From: a virus
Virus record (IMG/VR): IMGVR_UViG_3300042908_000670
Location: 1-24,383 of that record
Strand: one strand, 5' to 3'
Length of the DNA: 24,383 nt
Under the pieces are notes generated by a model. That model saw nothing but the letters and a program-made list of their open reading frames with translations, was not told the DNA's origin and did not search any database. Made by a program: the position numbers and the translations under genes. Below are positions 1,715-22,517 of the stretch, one piece after another; positions within the stretch are counted from its first letter, which is position 1; every line of letters begins with the position of its first letter.

Positions 1715-2124
1715 TGGCTTTCGCATCCGTTGACGATGTCGCGGTGCGCTGGTCCCGCGATCTGTCCTGCGAGGAACGGGAACTCGTTTCGGTTCGCTTG
1801 GAGGACGTGGAGCGCCTGATCCGCCGCAGGGTTCCCACGCTCGATGATCGGCTCGCCGCAGGTTCGATTGATGTTGAGGATTTAATTCAGGTTGAAGCTG
1901 ACGCGGTGCTGCGTTTGTGCCGCAACCCTGAGGGCTACGTCAGTGAAACGGACGGCAATTACACCTACCAGTTGTCGAAAGACCTCGCTACCGGGAAGTT
2001 GACTTTGACTTCCGATGAGTGGGCGATGCTGGGTGTTTACCGGAACCGTTTGACAACCCTTGTGCCTTCGGTGCTGCTTGGCGATGGATACACAGTTCTA
2101 GGTGAGGCGGAAATACAGCAATGA
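1714..2124 (+). CDS. Head-to-tail adaptor (connector 1)
   Basis: A 136-residue protein beginning MAFASVDDVAVRWSRDLSCE. The pattern of a short helical start (ASVDDVAVRW), an Arg-rich helix containing RLEDVERLIRRR, a middle helix (EDLIQVEADAVLRLCRNPEG) and a later YQL/LTSDEWAMLG segment matches the gp6/gp15-type adaptor family, which docks under the portal ring and starts the neck. I chose ATG 1714, which overlaps the preceding stop, over an upstream in-frame start that would run through the hairpin and the small gene. The stop overlaps the next start (ATGA). The family call is from pattern recognition and position, with good confidence. Confidence 0.85.
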   Translation: MAFASVDDVAVRWSRDLSCEERELVSVRLEDVERLIRRRVPTLDDRLAAGSIDVEDLIQVEADAVLRLCRNPEGYVSETDGNYTYQLSKDLATGKLTLTSDEWAMLGVYRNRLTTLVPSVLLGDGYTVLGEAEIQQ

Positions 2125-3542
2125 CAACAGTTTTCACGGTGATCGGTGTTAAGAAACTGATCTACCAAACACTGCAGGATGATTACGGTGTCCTGCCCAA
2201 TGGTGGTGGGACACTCGGCGGTGGTGCCGGTTTGACCCAGGCCGAGGTTCAGGCGCTTGTCGATGCGGCTGTCGCTAACGTGGTTGTCGGTGGCGGCGGT
2301 GTGACCCAGGCTGCTGTGGATGCGGCTATCGCGGCGGCTATCGCCACCGTTGCGCCGTCCAGCGGCGATCTTCAATCCCTGATTGATGGTTTGGCTGGTA
2401 GGCCGAGCTCGCCGGTGTCGACCGCCGTCAACAAGATCAACGCGGCCCTGGAAGTTCTGTCCGGTTTGGGTCCCGCCGTTGGGAATGCGTTGGCTGTGCT
2501 TGCTGGGGAGGCTCAGCCTTACCCCGGTGAACCTGCCGTTGATGACGCCGTGTTGGGGTGGCTCGCGAAGATCGAGACCAGTGTGGCGGCGTGGAACGCC
2601 GGCGGTGGTTTGACACCGGAGCAGGCTGTGCTGCTGGGGCAGGTTCAGCCGCTGCTTGATCTGCTCGCGGTGAAGCCTGGTGCGACGGTAGCTGACGTGG
2701 CCGAGGTGTGGGAAGCGTTGTCGGATACCAGCGTCGGGTTCGCGCAACTGCTAGCCACGCTTTCAGGTAAGCCGCTGTCGCAGAATCCTACGGTCGCTGA
2801 TGTGCAGGCCGGGTTGCCGGTGCTGATTCAGACCATCGTGGATGCGGCTGTCGCTAACCTCCCGGCGGGCGGGCCGACCCCGGCAGCGGTGACCGCCGCT
2901 ATCGTCAACTGGGTCACCGCTGATGTGAACACCAATACCGGCATCATTGGCGGCTACTTCTCGGACTTCAACCAGCGGTTGCTCGATGAGGTGACGACCC
3001 GCACCGACGAGACTCGGGGGTTGGAGCAGGGCTACCAGTTCCTCCGCACAGGCAAGGCTGAGCAGACCGCCCTCGACGGCGTGGTGGATCGCGTCACCGC
3101 CCTGGAAGGTGCCGCTCTTGGTGGCGGCGAGGGTGTTTCTCAGGCGGTTGTGGACTCGCTGCTGGCACGCCTAGACGCGCTGGAAGCGGAGAACGCCGCC
3201 CTAAAAGTCCGCGTTAAGAACAGCGAAGAAGTCTTGGGCGTTACAGGGAACACGCTTGACCAGCTACAGCAGAACGACGCGGAAATTGTGGAGTTCATGT
3301 CAACCAAGCTGGTCACTAAGGAGTTCTTTGAGATCTGGGAAGGTTCCATCGTCAATCTGCTCAGCGGCATCTACACCGACATCAACAACCTCAAGGCGTT
3401 GACGCAGGCCACCCTAGATGCGATGAACGGGCCGAACGCCACAGTGGAAAGCGTCCAGCAGATGTTCTGGTTGCTCAACGACATTCTGGTCGCGCTGATC
3501 GAAGCCACTGGAATCGAAATCGCCGGAAAGGTAACACCGTGA
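2121..3542 (+). CDS. Repeat-containing, coiled-coil structural protein (candidate head fibre or decoration)
   Basis: I do not recognise a named family for this 473-residue protein. It begins MTTVFTVIGVKKLIYQTLQDDYG and then has Gly-rich linkers separating copies of a G(L/V)(T/S)QAxV...(V)DAAVAN-type motif near residues 37, 60, 240 (partial) and 337. The DNA copies at about 2260 and 2838 are nearly identical (gatgcggctgtcgctaac). Near residues 310-370 there is a DRVTALEG segment and a heptad-rich coiled coil (LARLDALEAENAALKVRV). This looks like a trimeric, fibrous protein. It sits among head-tail connector genes, overlaps its neighbours by ATGA and GTGA junctions, and shares the VTALE element with the next gene. 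A capsid-attached fibre is my inference. A tail or neck fibre is the alternative. Confidence 0.6.
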   Translation: MTTVFTVIGVKKLIYQTLQDDYGVLPNGGGTLGGGAGLTQAEVQALVDAAVANVVVGGGGVTQAAVDAAIAAAIATVAPSSGDLQSLIDGLAGRPSSPVSTAVNKINAALEVLSGLGPAVGNALAVLAGEAQPYPGEPAVDDAVLGWLAKIETSVAAWNAGGGLTPEQAVLLGQVQPLLDLLAVKPGATVADVAEVWEALSDTSVGFAQLLATLSGKPLSQNPTVADVQAGLPVLIQTIVDAAVANLPAGGPTPAAVTAAIVNWVTADVNTNTGIIGGYFSDFNQRLLDEVTTRTDETRGLEQGYQFLRTGKAEQTALDGVVDRVTALEGAALGGGEGVSQAVVDSLLARLDALEAENAALKVRVKNSEEVLGVTGNTLDQLQQNDAEIVEFMSTKLVTKEFFEIWEGSIVNLLSGIYTDINNLKALTQATLDAMNGPNATVESVQQMFWLLNDILVALIEATGIEIAGKVTP

Positions 3543-16575: not shown

Positions 16576-16577
16576 TG

Positions 16578-16626
16578 GTGGGCGTCCACCGACTCGGAAC
16601 ATGAGTCGGTGGGCGCCCACTTTTTT
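16578..16626 (+). terminator. Strong intrinsic terminator of the late operon
   Basis: An 18-bp stem (16578-16595 with 16603-16620, one G:U pair) with loop GGAACAT is followed by six T residues (16621-16626). It closes the structural operon 30 bases after its last stop and protects the attP/integrase region from readthrough. Confidence 0.93.
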
Positions 16627-16902: not shown

Positions 16903-18114
16903 GTGGCTTCACTGCGCGTCCGTAAACGGGCCGACGGCTCCACCGCCTACAACGTTGTCTACGTCCACGACGGCAGGCAGACCAGCGTCACTTTCGACAC
17001 CGAGCCCGCAGCCGAGGAGTTCCTCAACAGCGTCCGGCTCCTCGGCGCGGAGCGGGCCATGAAAGCGTTCGGCATTGCACCCACCGCCCGGGCAGTACCC
17101 CGCAGACCGTCCGGGGTGACGGTGGCGGACTGGATCGCCAGCTACATCGCCTCACGATCTGGTGTCGCGAAGTCGACCATTTATGACTACGAGGCGATCC
17201 TCCGCAACGACATCCGAACGCACACCATCGGCGGCATCCCTCTGGAGCTCCTCGCCCGCGGTGATGTGGTCGGCTGGGTGAACGGCATGACCACCTCAGG
17301 CAAAACCATCGCCAACAAACACGGCCTACTCAGCGCGGCGCTGAACACGGCGGTGCGGGCCGAACTGATCCCCTCAAACCCCGCAGTGGGGATCCGGCTG
17401 CCCCGCTCAGAGAAACCGGAGATGGTGTTCCTCACCAAAGAGGAGTTCGCCCAGTTGCAGGCCGGCTTCACCGACTACTGGCAGCCGCTGATCGAGTTCA
17501 TGGTGTTGTCGGGGATGAGGTTCGGGGAGATCTCTGCGCTGAAACCGTCCGACGTGGAAGTCGCGGCCGGGACGGTGCGGATCTCCCGCGCCCGGAAACG
17601 CACCTACGAGAAGGGCTCGAACTACCAGATCGGGACAACTAAAACCCAACGCTCAGTGCGGACGATCAACGTCCACCGCAACATTCTTGAGAAGCTGGAC
17701 TACACGGGGGAGTGGCTGTTCACCAACACCCGCGGTGGGCCGCTGCTGCTGGCCGGCTGGCGCGCGAATGTTTGGTACAAGTCGGTGGCCCGCGCCCAGG
17801 CGTTGGGGCTGAAGAAAGCCCCGAGGGTGCATGACCTTCGCCATACGTGCGCTAGCTGGATGGTTCAGGCCGGGGTTCCGTTACCGGTGATCCAAGCGCA
17901 CCTGGGACACCAGAACATTTCGACGACGATATCGCTGTATGCCCATCTTGACCGGGCGAGCTACCTCAGTGCTGCGGAGTTGATCGGCGCCGGTTTGTAC
18001 GGAGCCGACGCAGCCGATACACCAGCTGCGGATCAGCCTGAAGAAACGCCGGATCATCCAACAGCTGGTTCAACAGTTGGTGGTAGCGAACCGAAGACAG
18101 CCCCAACGCCCTGA
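16903..18114 (+). CDS. int: Tyrosine integrase
   Basis: A 403-residue site-specific recombinase catalysing integration at attP/attB. An N-terminal arm-binding domain (residues about 1-50, SLRVRKRADGSTAYNVVYVH) is followed by a SAM-like core-binding domain (about 70-165, ADWIASYIASRSGV...). The catalytic domain has R206 (SGMRFGEISAL), a Lys/Arg strand (TKTQRSVR, about 245-252), H310-xx-R313 (HDLRHTCASWM), H336 (GHQNISTT) and the nucleophile Y346 (SLYAHL). All catalytic positions are present. The GTG start has GGGGGAT about 6 bases before. The last ~50 residues are low-complexity (Ala/Pro/Thr/Glu) and lie antisense to the DUF3263 gene. It sits next to attP as expected. Confidence 0.95.
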   Translation: MASLRVRKRADGSTAYNVVYVHDGRQTSVTFDTEPAAEEFLNSVRLLGAERAMKAFGIAPTARAVPRRPSGVTVADWIASYIASRSGVAKSTIYDYEAILRNDIRTHTIGGIPLELLARGDVVGWVNGMTTSGKTIANKHGLLSAALNTAVRAELIPSNPAVGIRLPRSEKPEMVFLTKEEFAQLQAGFTDYWQPLIEFMVLSGMRFGEISALKPSDVEVAAGTVRISRARKRTYEKGSNYQIGTTKTQRSVRTINVHRNILEKLDYTGEWLFTNTRGGPLLLAGWRANVWYKSVARAQALGLKKAPRVHDLRHTCASWMVQAGVPLPVIQAHLGHQNISTTISLYAHLDRASYLSAAELIGAGLYGADAADTPAADQPEETPDHPTAGSTVGGSEPKTAPTP

Positions 18115-18184
18115 TCGCTTCGTCTTTCGCCCCGGCGGTACGCCAGAACTGCCGCTCGATCTGCAGCACGGTCACGGGATCCAC
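17966..18184 (-). CDS. DUF3263 family protein
   Basis: A 72-residue protein with the clear pattern of the actinobacterial DUF3263 family: an ERQFWRTAGAKDEAIRALGL start, SSVRYHQLLNQLLDDPAFLQ and a basic VYRLRRLRTNRRRS tail. The family is helical, with a predicted helix-turn-helix-like fold, found in host genomes and phages; its role is not known. I chose GTG 18184 with GGAGA six bases upstream over GTG 18190, which would overlap that ribosome site. It overlaps the 3' end of the metalloprotease gene by 13 bases. Its 3' half overlaps the end of the integrase gene (17966-18114) on the opposite strand. Confidence 0.8.
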   Translation of the reverse strand: MDPVTVLQIERQFWRTAGAKDEAIRALGLSSVRYHQLLNQLLDDPAFLQADPQLVYRLRRLRTNRRRSTPQH

Positions 18185-18603
18185 AGCCACTCTCCGTTCA
18201 ATCTGTTCTCCAACTCGGCCACCTCGACGGGATCCAGCGCGGCCATCCGGGCTTGCAGGGTGGGTACATCGACCCAGAGGTGTTCGGCGAGCTGCTCTGG
18301 GTCGCGGGTCCAGCGCAGCCCGTCCACCAACGCGGGCAGGGTGATGAGGCGCCGGGCCGCGATGTGATCCACTGCCCGTTCCTCCCGGGCCAGGCCGCGG
18401 GCATCAGCTGGGGTGAGGCCGCGCTCGAGGTGGACGATTTCGTGGGTTAGGGTGCAGCGGCGGGCGGCCTGATCGAGGCGGCGGCACAGCCAGATCCGCC
18501 GGCCGTTCGTCAGCCCCCACATCCGGCCGGGCAGCTCGACGTTCGTTACGACGGACACGTCGGGGTAGTGCTTGCCGATGTGCCGCCACGGATTCCACCC
18601 CAT
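18172..18603 (-). CDS. ImmA/IrrE-like metalloprotease
   Basis: A 143-residue protein with a zinc protease motif H54-E55-xx-H58 (THEIVHLERG), preceded by LDQAARRCTL and followed by a helix (EERAVDHIAARRLI) that supplies a likely third ligand (E74 or E75). ImmA-type proteases cleave repressors to switch on mobile elements (known from ICEBs1). The start ATG 18603 gives MGWNPWRHIGKHYPDVSVVT, the usual family opening, although no clear ribosome site precedes it; TTG 18654 is an alternative. It is cotranscribed with the upstream repressor (62-base gap). A role in repressor turnover is inferred from this arrangement. Confidence 0.8.
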   Translation of the reverse strand: MGWNPWRHIGKHYPDVSVVTNVELPGRMWGLTNGRRIWLCRRLDQAARRCTLTHEIVHLERGLTPADARGLAREERAVDHIAARRLITLPALVDGLRWTRDPEQLAEHLWVDVPTLQARMAALDPVEVAELENRLNGEWLWIP

Positions 18604-18665
18604 GACCGCGAAAGCTAATCGGGGGCTCTGACAAGAAGCCGCCGTGACCAGCAACTACACCGATG

Positions 18666-18947
18666 TCATTCCGGTTTCGGTTTGGGCCGGTCCTCGGTGC
18701 GGGCCGCCATAGGAAGGTCCCCATCGCTGTATCCGGCGTCCTGCAGTGCGGCGTTGAGTACGACCTCGTAGGGCACGCCGATGACCCGGGCGACACCTTC
18801 GAGGTGTTCCCGCCTAGGCAGTGTCGTCGGCCGGTCTTTCCAGTTCTGCACGGTTTGCGGTGTTGTGCCCGCTCGTCGTGCGAATTCGGAGCGAGTCACA
18901 CCGTAGCGATCCAGGTGAGCCTGGATCAGGTTCAGTAACTCACTCAC
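18666..18947 (-). CDS. Phage repressor (XRE-type helix-turn-helix)
   Basis: A 93-residue protein beginning MSELLNLIQAHLDRYGVTRS and containing an XRE helix-turn-helix (RSEFARRAGTTPQTVQNWKD, about residues 19-38), a dimerisation-like middle (HLEGVARVIGVPYEVVLNAA) and a short acidic/Lys-rich tail. Position, orientation (divergent from a Cro-like gene, next to integrase) and size make it the likely immunity repressor. The GTG start has only a weak ribosome site, and it overlaps the TGA of a possible 20-codon leader frame (GTGA), which may couple its translation. An extended upstream start at 19028 is possible but lacks a ribosome site. Confidence 0.75.
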   Translation of the reverse strand: MSELLNLIQAHLDRYGVTRSEFARRAGTTPQTVQNWKDRPTTLPRREHLEGVARVIGVPYEVVLNAALQDAGYSDGDLPMAARTEDRPKPKPE

Positions 18948-19006
18948 GGGAGTGATCTTCCCGGTTTTCGAGATGTGTCGGCAACTTCCGCCGCTTGCGT
19001 GTTCAC
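18944..19006 (-). CDS. Possible 20-residue leader peptide before the repressor
   Basis: A GTG at 19006 is preceded by a strong purine run (GGGGGGAGGAAAC) and opens a 20-codon frame reading MNTQAAEVADTSRKPGRSLP. Its TGA overlaps the repressor GTG (GTGA). This would let ribosomes reach the repressor start, which has only a weak site of its own. The peptide is too short to judge by conservation here, so it could be simply a strong ribosome site with no real product. Confidence 0.4.
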   Translation of the reverse strand: MNTQAAEVADTSRKPGRSLP

Positions 19007-19028
19007 GTTTCCTCCCCCCAGGCGACAC

Positions 19029-19207: not shown

Positions 19208-19462
19208 ATGCGACTCCAGTCAGGGGCCACCCTGCAAGCGTTGATTGAGCAACGCGGCCTGAATCAGTCCCGGCTGGCCGAAGCCGCCGGCTGCTCCCGA
19301 AGCTTCATCAATGGGCTGTGCTCGGGGCAGCGCCGCTCATGCACCGACGACCTGGCCGCCCGTATCGCGGAGGTCGTCCAGGTGCCCATCGGTGTTCTTT
19401 TCGCGCCCGTTGAATCCCCAACCTCGGGATGCGCCGTATCGAAAGTGGGTGTTGTGGCATGA
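19208..19462 (+). CDS. Cro-like DNA-binding protein
   Basis: An 84-residue protein with an XRE-type helix-turn-helix, QSRLAEAAGCSRSFINGLCS (about residues 20-39), and AARIAEVVQVPIGVLF following it, as in Cro/CI-like regulators. It is the first gene of the rightward early operon, divergent from the repressor, the standard place for a Cro antagonist. A good ribosome site (GGAAGGAAGTGAG) precedes ATG 19208. The stop overlaps the next ATG (ATGA), so the excisionase-like protein is coupled to it. Confidence 0.85.
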   Translation: MRLQSGATLQALIEQRGLNQSRLAEAAGCSRSFINGLCSGQRRSCTDDLAARIAEVVQVPIGVLFAPVESPTSGCAVSKVGVVA

Positions 19463-19725
19463 GCGGCGTGACGTTGACCGAGTTCGCTGCCATCCTCGGC
19501 GCGGACAAGGTGATGCGGGAACCGGAGAGGTTCCTGATCCGCCAGATCAAGTCCGGGAAGATCCGCGCCCGCAAGGTCGGCCGGCACTGGGTGATGACCG
19601 AAGCGGACGTGGAGTTCGCCTTGGAGGCGTTCGGGAACGCCATAAAGCCTGAAGCCCCACCGGTTGAGGTTGTTAACGGTTTGTCGTCGGGGTCGGCGCG
19701 GCGCAGGTTGGCGGTGGCCGGATGA
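19459..19725 (+). CDS. Excisionase-like helix-turn-helix protein
   Basis: An 88-residue protein with a MerR/excisionase-type winged helix: LTEFAAILGADKVMREPERF, then LIRQIKSGKIRARKVGRHWV and MTEADVEFALEAF (about residues 5-60), and a Pro/Arg-rich C-terminal tail (SGSARRRLAVAG). Phage excisionases of this fold direct integrase toward excision. Its coupling to the Cro-like gene puts it under the early promoter, as suits an excision factor. No test here tells excisionase from a general regulator. Confidence 0.75.
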   Translation: MSGVTLTEFAAILGADKVMREPERFLIRQIKSGKIRARKVGRHWVMTEADVEFALEAFGNAIKPEAPPVEVVNGLSSGSARRRLAVAG

Positions 19726-20452: not shown

Positions 20453-20716
20453 ATGTCAACTAAGAAGTGTAGCAACCTCCCCGACCCGGTGTACGGGTCG
20501 CTGGACACCCACACCTGCCACCCCGCCCAAGTGTCGGCCGGTTCAAGCGACGACGGGAAACTGATCCACGTCTACATCGGCCCGTTCAACATCTCCATGT
20601 CGGAGCGGAACTGGCAGGCCGTGTTCTCCACGATCACCCGCGTTGAGGTGCCCATCCCGACGCGCCGCATCGTCCTGGACGACGAGAACGGCACCGCGAA
20701 GGTGGTGTCCGAATGA
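20453..20716 (+). CDS. Hypothetical early protein
   Basis: An 87-residue protein starting after the hairpin with an AGAGAAGG ribosome site close to ATG 20453. It begins MSTKKCSNLPDPVYGSLDTH, contains three Cys-free beta-like strands (KLIHVYIGPFNISMSERNWQ) and ends with a VPTRR-type basic strand and DDENGTAKVVSE. The stop overlaps the next ATG (ATGA). I do not recognise the family. It is encoded right before a secreted protein, but has no signal peptide itself. Confidence 0.6.
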   Translation: MSTKKCSNLPDPVYGSLDTHTCHPAQVSAGSSDDGKLIHVYIGPFNISMSERNWQAVFSTITRVEVPIPTRRIVLDDENGTAKVVSE

Positions 20717-21045
20717 GGACCAGCACTGTGCGGGCTTTCGCCCTGGGGATCTGCACCGGCTCCCTGATCGCCGCGGCCACCATCATCATCGCCGCCCCGG
20801 CGAAGGCCGACCCGGATCGGGTGTCACTGGACTACGCCCAACGCTACGGCTGGGCGGTGTGCGCCACCCTGGATGAGTTCCCCAGCTTCGCCGGGGTCGT
20901 CGGGGTCGGTGCATCCATCAACGACGACGGCCTGTCCTGGCAGCAAGCCGGCCATGTCCTCGCCGTGTCAGTTGCCGACCGGTGCCCACGCCACCTGGCG
21001 CTGCTCAAAGCGTTCGCCGCCCAAGACAGCGGGGTCGTGGCGTGA
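20713..21045 (+). CDS. Secreted DUF732-like protein
   Basis: A 110-residue protein with a clear Sec signal peptide: basic start (MRTSTVR), hydrophobic core (about residues 8-28) and an AKA|DP cleavage site at residue 32. The mature part has two Cys (C50 and C91, likely disulfide), GVVGVGASINDDGLSWQQAG and AVSVADRCPRHL, which match the DUF732 family of small secreted mycobacterial proteins. Family members are abundant in the cell envelope of mycobacteria and their role is unknown. ATG 20713 overlaps the previous stop, and its stop overlaps the next GTG. A phage copy in an early operon might alter the host surface. Confidence 0.75.
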   Translation: MRTSTVRAFALGICTGSLIAAATIIIAAPAKADPDRVSLDYAQRYGWAVCATLDEFPSFAGVVGVGASINDDGLSWQQAGHVLAVSVADRCPRHLALLKAFAAQDSGVVA

Positions 21046-21437
21046 TCGACTGGCTGGCTGTCCATTTCGTGGTTGAAGGGTCCGCCCTGAAACTGCGGCC
21101 CGACGAGAAACGCATGGTCATGCGGCGACTTGAAAGCAAAGTCGTCACCGCGCAGGAATGCGAAGGGAACTTCGTCCCCCCGGGGAAGCTGACGTTGGCT
21201 GAGGTGGCCGACCGGTTGCAGATCACCGACCGTTCGGTATCCAGGTTCCTCGCGGAAATGCCGTGCGGGGAGAAGAAAACCTGCCCCGTGTGCCACGAAT
21301 CCATGTGGGTGGTGTCCGGTGTTGTCGAACCGCACCCCACACGACTGTTCGAGGAGTGCCCCATGTCGGGCCGGGAGGTTCGCCGCGGGTTGGCGGCCAC
21401 ACGCCCCGACCTTTACTCCTGGTTGGAGTCGGTGTGA
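21042..21437 (+). CDS. Helix-turn-helix protein with Cys-rich element
   Basis: A 131-residue protein, MIDWLAVHFVVEGSALKLRP onward. Residues about 50-70 (LTLAEVADRLQITDRSVSRF) form a clear helix-turn-helix, and C75, C81, C84 and C106 (CPVC plus flanking Cys) could bind zinc. A helical C-terminus (REVRRGLAATRPDLYSWLE) follows. A DNA-binding regulator is likely. The GTG overlaps the previous stop (GTGA) and the stop overlaps the next GTG. Not similar to WhiB, which has a different Cys pattern. Confidence 0.7.
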   Translation: MIDWLAVHFVVEGSALKLRPDEKRMVMRRLESKVVTAQECEGNFVPPGKLTLAEVADRLQITDRSVSRFLAEMPCGEKKTCPVCHESMWVVSGVVEPHPTRLFEECPMSGREVRRGLAATRPDLYSWLESV

Positions 21438-21652
21438 ACAGGCTGCGGGTGGGTTTCGCGTTGACGGGGATCATCGGGATGCTCCTGACGGCGTTCGGGT
21501 TGTTCGACTCGATGGTGCAGCTCGCCGCCGGGATGGTGGTGGCGGCAGCTGGTCTGATCGGTTACTGCGCAGTGGATTACGTCGACAACGACCGTTCCTT
21601 CCGTGAGGACTACCGGGATCAGGTGTGGGCTCGCCGGGATGGTGGCTGGTGA
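21434..21652 (+). CDS. Small membrane protein
   Basis: A 72-residue protein with two transmembrane helices (about residues 6-26 and 30-50; VGFALTGIIGMLLTAFGLF and MVQLAAGMVVAAAGLIGYC) and a soluble acidic/basic C-terminal tail (DYVDNDRSFREDYRDQVWAR). Location in the early operon makes a classical holin unlikely; it could be a membrane factor acting on the host. GTG 21434 overlaps the preceding stop, and its stop overlaps the next GTG. Confidence 0.65.
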   Translation: MNRLRVGFALTGIIGMLLTAFGLFDSMVQLAAGMVVAAAGLIGYCAVDYVDNDRSFREDYRDQVWARRDGGW

Positions 21653-21900
21653 GCGGGCTGCGGTGGGTTCAGAGAAGGTACACCGGTCACACCGCTGATG
21701 TGGTGGCGGGCCATTACTCGGTGCAGCCCGATAAGAGTTACCGCCTTGGGGTGGCGGAGGTGCGGTGGGTGGCGCGTTTGGTTCGGCACCGCCGCCCGCT
21801 GGTGATGCTCGGGTATTTCGACACCGCGGAGGCTGCGAAGCGGGCGTGCGAAATCAACGACAGGTGGTGCGAGGACATAGAAGCGGGAGCAATCGGATGA
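21649..21900 (+). CDS. Hypothetical early protein
   Basis: An 83-residue protein (MSGLRWVQRRYTGHTADVVA onward) with several aromatic and Arg residues, a strand-like middle (SYRLGVAEVRWVARLVRHRR) and a C-terminal helix with GYFDTAEAAKRACEINDRWC. The LGYFDTAEAAKRACE segment resembles an AP2-like or short domain of phage proteins, but I cannot name a family. It precedes the ERF gene with an ATGA overlap. Function unknown. Confidence 0.6.
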   Translation: MSGLRWVQRRYTGHTADVVAGHYSVQPDKSYRLGVAEVRWVARLVRHRRPLVMLGYFDTAEAAKRACEINDRWCEDIEAGAIG

Positions 21901-22517
21901 GTGACGGTTTAGCGGCGGCGCTGGTGAAGTTCCAGGCGCAGGTTCCGACGATCCCGAAGAACAACACCGCGAAGATCCCGATGAAGGGCGGCGGTTCGTA
22001 CTCCTACAAGTACGCCGATCTGTCGGATGTGTGGGAAGCGATCCGTAAGCCGTTGTCGGATAACGGGTTGGCGGTCACCCAGCCTTTGACAACGGTCACC
22101 GCGGGGTGCTTGGGCATCAAAACGAAGATCTGGCATGTGTCCGGTGAGACCGACGAGTCGGTGTTTGAGTTCCCTGTGGCGGGTAAGTCGCCCCAGGAAG
22201 TCGGCTCCGCGATCACCTATTACAAGCGGTATGCGTTGTCGGCGGCGTTGGGGTTGGACATCGACGACGACGATGACGGCGCCGCGGCCACCCACCGCCC
22301 CCAGGCGAAACCCGCCGCTAAGCCGTTGTCGCCGGCGGATCAGGCCCGGGAGGACCTGCTGAGGTTGGTGACCGCCAACAAGCTGGATCCGAAGAAGTTG
22401 GGTGTCCGGTTCTTCAACGATTACGGGTTGGACATCAAGGACGCCGATGTGGAGACGGTTCGCGGGTTCCTGTCGATTGTCGCGGATGAGGTCGCTGTGG
22501 ATAAGGCGGCCGGCTGA
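21897..22517 (+). CDS. ERF family single-strand annealing protein
   Basis: A 206-residue protein of the ERF superfamily: the N-terminal part has LVKFQAQVPTIPKNNTAKIP, then YSYKYADLSDVWEAIRKPLS, TVTAGCLGIKTKIWHVSGE and SPQEVGSAITYYKRYALSAA (about residues 90-115), the classic ERF signature, and an acidic linker (DIDDDDDGAAATH). A C-terminal helix bundle follows. ERF proteins anneal single-stranded DNA during phage recombination and repair. Start ATG 21897 overlaps the preceding stop (ATGA). Its stop overlaps the next ATG (TGATG). Confidence 0.9.
   Translation: MSDGLAAALVKFQAQVPTIPKNNTAKIPMKGGGSYSYKYADLSDVWEAIRKPLSDNGLAVTQPLTTVTAGCLGIKTKIWHVSGETDESVFEFPVAGKSPQEVGSAITYYKRYALSAALGLDIDDDDDGAAATHRPQAKPAAKPLSPADQAREDLLRLVTANKLDPKKLGVRFFNDYGLDIKDADVETVRGFLSIVADEVAVDKAAG

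What the first reader, a model, noticed from the sequence alone, without database searches (positions are those of the whole stretch)
20713..21045. Phage-encoded secreted DUF732-like protein
A signal peptide, cleavage site and paired Cys in the early operon point to export early in infection. Since DUF732 proteins are host envelope proteins, the phage copy may have been taken from a host and may block superinfection or alter the surface.
Basis: partly seen in the sequence, partly recalled or inferred. Interest (0 to 1): 0.5.

Follow-up and report, generated by a model that had tools for sequence, protein, structure and literature searches.

The report
Secreted early DUF732 phage protein
This is a real virus gene for a small, probably exported protein from a family that recurs in the same early-gene position in related viruses of mycobacteria; of three tested relatives found, two harm the host cell when overproduced and one does not, and the target is unknown.

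Summary
ORF 20713-21045 (+, 110 aa) has a predicted signal peptide ending AKA|D, and C50 and C91 in the mature part. Purifying selection is clear: 9 of 9 substitutions against L007 fall at third codon positions. It overlaps both neighbours (ATGA, GTGA) between the lysogeny switch and an ERF recombinase. Alone it scores below Pfam's DUF732 cut-off (19.3 against 22.4 bits), but relatives pass it and it joins phrog_658, so DUF732 kinship is well supported. It belongs to a short subfamily (100/96 support) of 16 phage or prophage rows and 5 rare chromosomal rows, lacking the classic first helix. In 12 of 12 short-type phages read, and 6 of 10 classic cases, the gene lies between switch and recombination genes. 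In F1 phages that slot adjoins Fruitloop gp52, a superinfection-exclusion gene, and whiB. From published screens, Girr gp54 (printed as 'NKF') is a DUF732 and toxic (score 2), Troll4 gp76 toxic (4 of 5), Adephagia gp40 not toxic. Best reading: an early exported envelope effector, possibly for superinfection exclusion. Recent host capture is not supported. New member of a known kind.

The parts
20713..21045 (+). Secreted short-type DUF732 protein, 110 aa (the finding)
20713..20808 (+). Predicted signal peptide (residues 1-32), cleavage A-K-A|D
   Evidence: one search rule plus sequence; A32 and D33 invariant
20809..21042 (+). Mature domain: four predicted helices (34-55, 59-71, 76-90, 92-105)
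   Evidence: AlphaFold2 model, block means 91-95 pLDDT for residues 41-100
20860..20862 (+). Cys50 codon, first of the invariant pair
20983..20994 (+). Cys91-Pro-Arg-His94: second Cys and short-type C-x-x-H motif
20453..20716 (+). Upstream ORF, 87 aa, no family; its stop overlaps the DUF732 start (ATGA)
21042..21437 (+). Downstream DUF7368 protein (phrog_2096), start overlaps DUF732 stop (GTGA)
18172..18654 (-). Metallo-protease (phrog_87; ImmA-like by recall)
18666..19028 (-). Transcriptional repressor (HTH)
19208..19462 (+). Cro/C1-type HTH protein, first rightward gene of the switch
19429..19725 (+). Excisionase (phrog_1840)
21434..21652 (+). Small protein with two hydrophobic stretches (by eye), no family
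21897..22517 (+). ERF single-strand annealing protein
16903..18114 (+). Integrase (phrog_1)

Best explanation
The gene encodes an early lytic effector that works outside the cytoplasm. After infection or induction the rightward early operon is transcribed. The protein is exported by Sec, cut after A32, and folds into a small four-helix domain held by a C50-C91 disulfide. In the mycobacterial envelope it binds a host partner, probably one used by host DUF732 proteins, and so changes envelope function. The likeliest benefit is excluding or hampering competing phages during the infection. Shown here: the gene, the signal (by rule), the Cys pair, DUF732 kinship and the conserved position. Published for relatives: growth inhibition on overexpression in two of the three that I found tested. 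Inferred: expression time, export, disulfide, partner and benefit.
For: Coding and signal peptide. DUF732 kinship. Short-type clade 100/96. Slot between switch and recombination genes in 12 of 12 short-type phages read: the window, 10 of the 53 records, and prophi91-4. Same slot in 6 of 10 classic cases read (Fruitloop, DLane, Cerasum, Girr, Redi, Camster). Short and classic types replace each other in one slot: Butters gp44/Redi gp45 and Purky gp45/Camster gp38, the latter pair with similar leaders by eye. Fruitloop gp54 lies two genes from gp52, which impedes superinfection through Wag31 (PMC7474061 passages). Girr gp54 is DUF732 (65.6 bits) and cytotoxic score 2, a 1-3 log loss (PMC11075535 section 11). 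Troll4 gp76 is DUF732 (40.5 bits), toxicity index 4 of 5 (PMC7474061 passages). Early lytic transcription begins upstream of the Cro gene in Adephagia (PMC11373665 section 19).
Against: No short-type protein was found tested. Adephagia gp40, also DUF732, is non-toxic, lies on the other strand and is expressed in lysogens. The two toxic relatives are classic type, and Troll4 gp76 is not in the slot. About a quarter to a third of genes score as toxic in such screens (28% in Girr, with 34% and 25% quoted for two others), so two toxic relatives are weak evidence. Overproducing any exported protein may jam secretion. Girr gp53, the 85% identical homologue of Fruitloop gp52, was not toxic. No match to gp52 or WhiB families was seen among the window ORFs scanned. 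No relative in the PDB points to a target.
Confidence: 0.5

Rival explanations
1. Lysogenic conversion: the protein is made by the prophage and changes the surface of the lysogen, helping the host or blocking other phages.
For: Adephagia gp40, a DUF732 lipoprotein-like product, is relatively strongly expressed in lysogens. phiGD20-1 carries a second DUF732, gp105, on the minus strand near glycosyltransferase genes.
Against: In the window the gene is on the rightward strand downstream of cro and xis, which the repressor should silence in a lysogen. The 11 short-type records read have the same layout. No lysogen transcript data were seen for any of them.
Confidence: 0.15
2. Envelope preparation for later steps of the phage's own cycle: it perturbs cell-wall growth or division early, to favour replication or timely lysis, without any role against other phages.
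For: Toxicity of Girr gp54 and Troll4 gp76. In F1 phages neighbours act on division and wall growth (gp52-Wag31; TM4 WhiB inhibits WhiB2, passages).
Against: For the neighbour gp52, exclusion and not toxicity is reported as the benefit, and gp52 is not essential. Nothing was measured for the DUF732 gene itself.
Confidence: 0.2
3. Near-neutral passenger gene kept by mosaicism, with no important role.
For: Short and classic types replace each other in the slot. Four phages screened genome-wide (Waterfoul, Hammy, Amelie, LeBron) have no DUF732 match. Adephagia gp40 is non-toxic.
Against: Strong third-position bias, invariant Cys pair, and the same slot in 12 of 12 short-type phages read.
Confidence: 0.15

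Closest known systems
Phage short-type DUF732 proteins of phrog_658 (prophi68-1 gp21, phiT46-1 gp43, Butters gp44, Purky gp45)
   Same: Leader plus mature domain of similar size, Cys spacing 41, C-x-x-H, early slot, 35-45% identity in the matched part
   Different: The window protein is on its own unresolved branch; of 53 phage records none matches 80% of it in one place and none exceeds 60% identity
Classic phage DUF732 (Girr gp54, Fruitloop gp54, Redi gp45, Troll4 gp76)
   Same: Export signal, Cys pair, same PHROG; three of these four in the same slot
   Different: An extra N-terminal helix (model of a Redi-type relative: 5 mature helices; window: 4); Cys spacing 39-44 (Girr by eye)
Host DUF732 proteins (PF05305)
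   Same: Signal peptide or lipobox, Cys pair, DUF732 domain; found in 52 of 61 sampled genomes
   Different: The host rows read are mostly classic type (25 classic, 5 short). M. tuberculosis LprJ is reported to interact with KdpD (PMC3610689 passage; that LprJ is DUF732 is recalled). No partner is known to me for phage forms
Fruitloop gp52 (Wag31 inhibitor, superinfection exclusion)
   Same: Early-region small protein, neighbour of the DUF732 slot in F1 phages
   Different: No DUF732 match and no signal-like start by eye; Wag31 is a cytoplasmic target (recalled)

Membership tests
DUF732 (Pfam PF05305) | Score over the curated gathering cut-off, 22.4 bits | tested here: not met
   19.3 bits, E=0.0016. 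Relatives P0005 33.8 and P0004 25.5 bits meet it; P0002 19.3 and P0003 16.8 do not.
DUF732 (Pfam PF05305) | Homology to accepted members shown by intermediates and profile | tested here: met
   tblastn E 4e-12 with prophi68-1 gp21, itself over the cut-off; shared phrog_658 with Girr gp54; Foldseek ranks 1-2 are phage DUF732 proteins, only rank 1 under E 0.001.
DUF732 (Pfam PF05305) | Full-length domain including N-terminal helix (profile positions 1-19) | tested here: not met
   Match covers profile 20-71 of 72; four instead of five mature helices.
Short-type phage DUF732 (clade defined here) | Place in the clade, Cys spacing 41-42, C-x-x-H | tested here: met
   Clade 100/96, bootstrap not fully settled; C50-C91 spacing 41, CPRH.
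Secreted or envelope protein | Signal peptide with SPase I site | tested here: met
   Rule-based only, control 3 of 102; SignalP not available; export itself not testable here.
Superinfection-exclusion protein | Blocks infection by another phage | not testable with these tools
   Only neighbourhood evidence in F1 relatives.
Recently captured host gene | Nests closely within host DUF732 sequences | tested here: not met
   Short-type clade of 16 phage and 5 host rows; the window row has a 0.83 terminal branch. Host rows were a sample.

The most novel reading that the evidence does not exclude
Temperate mycobacteriophages keep a dedicated early slot for an exported DUF732 effector. Phages exchange short and classic versions there to jam host envelope proteins or sensors of the same family, and so shut out rival phages: an outside-acting partner to cytoplasmic excluders such as Fruitloop gp52.
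Probability: 0.25. Interest if true: 0.6.

Novelty: new member of a known kind. Interest (0 to 1): 0.36.

Why it matters
DUF732 proteins are numerous in mycobacteria (up to 13 matches in one genome here) and the domain is still named as of unknown function. Phage versions in a recurrent early position, two of three tested relatives being growth inhibitors, give a handle on what the family does. The link that Girr gp54, listed as having no known function, is a DUF732 protein makes existing constructs usable for that question.

Tried and rejected
Rejected: chance ORF (third-position bias). Rejected: recent host capture. Rejected: lipoprotein for this protein (no lipobox at the cleavage site, by eye; Camster gp38 and RedWattleHog gp163 do look like lipoproteins). 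No sequence relative in the PDB (best E 0.73 and 0.57, unrelated) and no PDB fold match under E 0.001 (best 2.8). Hits L074, L075 (inside 4584-aa open frames) and L076 (lipase-like by eye) were set aside as chance. In the passages searched, the papers on Butters (PMC7542560) and on structural annotation of mycobacteriophages (PMC12363180) hold nothing on this gene. Searches for print: 'DUF732'+'phage' 5 papers, 'DUF732' 7 papers, Girr/Fruitloop gp54 by name 0 papers, so no paper in this library was found to call Girr gp54 a DUF732. Mycobacteriophage+signal peptide+secreted+superinfection gave 5 papers, none on point by title and abstract. The NormanBulbieJr screen (listing) and the other phages of PMC7474061 were not checked for DUF732 genes, so more tested relatives may exist. 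Rows left out of the tree: 9 of the 34 loci L035-L068 (L037, L049, L057, L059, L061, L063, L064, L066, L068) and L074-L076; 25 host classic rows were used. One search listed many more host matches for which no locus was made. Girr gp54, Adephagia gp40, DLane and Cerasum were not in the tree. L070 entered it with a start inside the domain. Of 36 distinct proteins (window plus 35, itself a pick of 37 loci) A3 used 33; L150, L163 and L171 were dropped. The tree has few columns (72), its bootstrap had not settled, and the host short rows group with 56/69 support only.

Full report
What is there. The ORF at 20713-21045 on the + strand is intact, starts with ATG and gives 110 residues. The window is a whole IMG/VR virus record of 24383 bases. 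The ORF's start overlaps the stop of the ORF before it (20453-20716, ATGA) and its stop overlaps the start of the next (21042-21437, GTGA). Three IMG/VR contigs carry copies at 98-99% protein identity (L006-L008). Against L007 and L008 all 9 substitutions are at third codon positions, with one in-frame 3-nt deletion in the signal peptide; against L006 11 of 13 are at third positions. The gene is real and constrained.

Signal and cysteines. A simple rule (positive start, uncharged hydrophobic 12-mer, A-x-A type site) finds a signal peptide with the site AKA|D. Nine of 12 short-type phage proteins pass at their annotated start and the other three only from an alternative start. Only 3 of 102 control CDS from five of the same loci pass, against 4 of the 5 DUF732 genes there. 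C50 and C91 are the only cysteines after the cleavage site and are invariant in alignments of 23 and 33 rows. The disulfide itself is inferred.

Family. Pfam gives DUF732 as the only match, below its cut-off (19.3 against 22.4 bits). PHROG phrog_658 matches at 7.8e-12. The relatives prophi68-1 gp21 and phiT46-1 gp43 pass the Pfam cut-off (33.8 and 25.5 bits); phiGD20-1 gp49 and Butters gp44 do not (19.3 and 16.8 bits). Classic DUF732 proteins of other phages hit the same PHROG. The AlphaFold2 model has four helices, with block means of 91-95 pLDDT for residues 41-100; the two best viral fold matches are phage DUF732 proteins, the first at E 8e-4. A classic relative of the Redi type has five mature helices. 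The window protein lacks the classic first helix: the profile match begins at position 20.

Short type. In a 52-row tree the short-type proteins form one group with 100/96 support: 16 phage or prophage rows and 5 chromosomal rows; the bootstrap had not fully settled. C-x-x-H at the second Cys is found in 16 of 16 phage or prophage short rows, 1 of 5 chromosomal short rows, 2 of 6 classic phage rows and 3 of 25 classic host rows; one further viral-contig short copy, L016, has CPRR. In 351 genomes of the family of M. franklinii P0001 matched in 8, at 12 places. Judged by neighbours, four of these are prophage (L069 and L077 clearly, L078 and L079 by weaker matches), five chromosomal (L070-L073, L080) and three chance (L074-L076, judged by their large or unrelated frames). 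Four of the five chromosomal copies (L071, L072, L073, L080) share flanking genes across four genomes. DUF732 itself was found in 52 of 61 sampled genomes of that family and in none of the 14 control genomes.

Position. In the window the order is metallo-protease and repressor (-), Cro-like, excisionase, phrog_13625, two small ORFs, DUF732, DUF7368, a small hydrophobic protein, ERF, HNH, then a stretch matching the DNA methyltransferase of phage Mao1. I opened 11 short-type phage records: 10 of the 53, plus prophi91-4. In all 11 the gene lies likewise on the rightward strand after the switch genes and before recombination genes. Some labels there are inferred: phiT46-1 has no gene labelled repressor, and phiGD20-1 labels its later genes 'dsDNA binding' and 'AAA-ATPase'. 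Classic DUF732 genes of Fruitloop, DLane, Cerasum, Girr, Redi and Camster are in the same slot; the Fruitloop record has few labels and is read by analogy with DLane. Those of Troll4, RedWattleHog, Adephagia and phiGD20-1 (gp105) are not. These phages share ancestry, so the counts are not independent. In clusters N and P (cluster names recalled) short and classic versions alternate in the slot: Butters gp44 and Redi gp45, Purky gp45 and Camster gp38.

Function clues from print. Fruitloop gp54 (DUF732, 66.5 bits) lies two genes after gp52, which interacts with Wag31 and impedes superinfection (PMC7474061 passages), and next to a WhiB gene. The original gp52 paper was not held. Girr gp54 is DUF732 (65.6 bits); its authors list it as 'NKF; TMD (1)' with cytotoxicity 2, a 1-3 log loss (PMC11075535 section 11). 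Troll4 gp76, listed as DUF732, has toxicity index 4 of 5 (PMC7474061 passages). Against this, Adephagia gp40, also DUF732 (40.1 bits), was not toxic and is expressed in lysogens from the reverse strand (PMC11373665 section 19). Toxic genes are common in such screens (28% of Girr genes), and Girr gp53, the gp52 homologue, was not toxic. Waterfoul, Hammy, Amelie and LeBron, also screened, have no DUF732 match. DUF732 was the most abundant domain around whiB loci of actinobacteriophages in one survey (37.9%, PMC8612146 passage). A host protein, LprJ of M. tuberculosis, is reported to interact with KdpD (PMC3610689 passage); that LprJ is DUF732 is recalled, supported only by the LprJ-like label of Adephagia gp40.

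Reading. The best reading is an early exported effector acting in the envelope, with superinfection exclusion as a likely but unproven benefit. The finding is ordinary as a family member. Its added value is the recurrent slot, the short subfamily and the link to published toxicity data.

Noticed in passing
L098:2423-2770 (Girr gp54): Published cytotoxic protein listed as of no known function is a secreted-type DUF732 protein (65.6 bits).
   Followed up: yes
L081:3717-3998 (-), phiGD20-1 gp105: A second, classic DUF732 gene on the minus strand near a glycosyltransferase cluster in a phage that also has the early short type; a possible lysogenic version.
   Followed up: partly
L034:3842-4258 and L095:3740-4243: Purky gp45 and Camster gp38 share a similar long N-terminal leader but carry short and classic DUF732 domains, a likely domain swap in one slot.
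   Followed up: partly
window 16577-16621: 20-pair terminator-like hairpin with T run between the tail-side genes and the integrase (the total of such sites, 6, is not above the shuffles, 6.3).
   Followed up: no
window 2121-3542: 473-aa Gly/Ala-rich protein among the head-to-tail genes with almost no family match (phrog_9321, 1.2e-5, 31 residues only).
   Followed up: no
L072:1453-1800 and L084:7112-7483: Rare chromosomal short-type DUF732 gene with shared flanking genes in four host genomes; could be a domesticated phage gene or the phage source.
   Followed up: partly
[quoted passage not shown]
   Followed up: no
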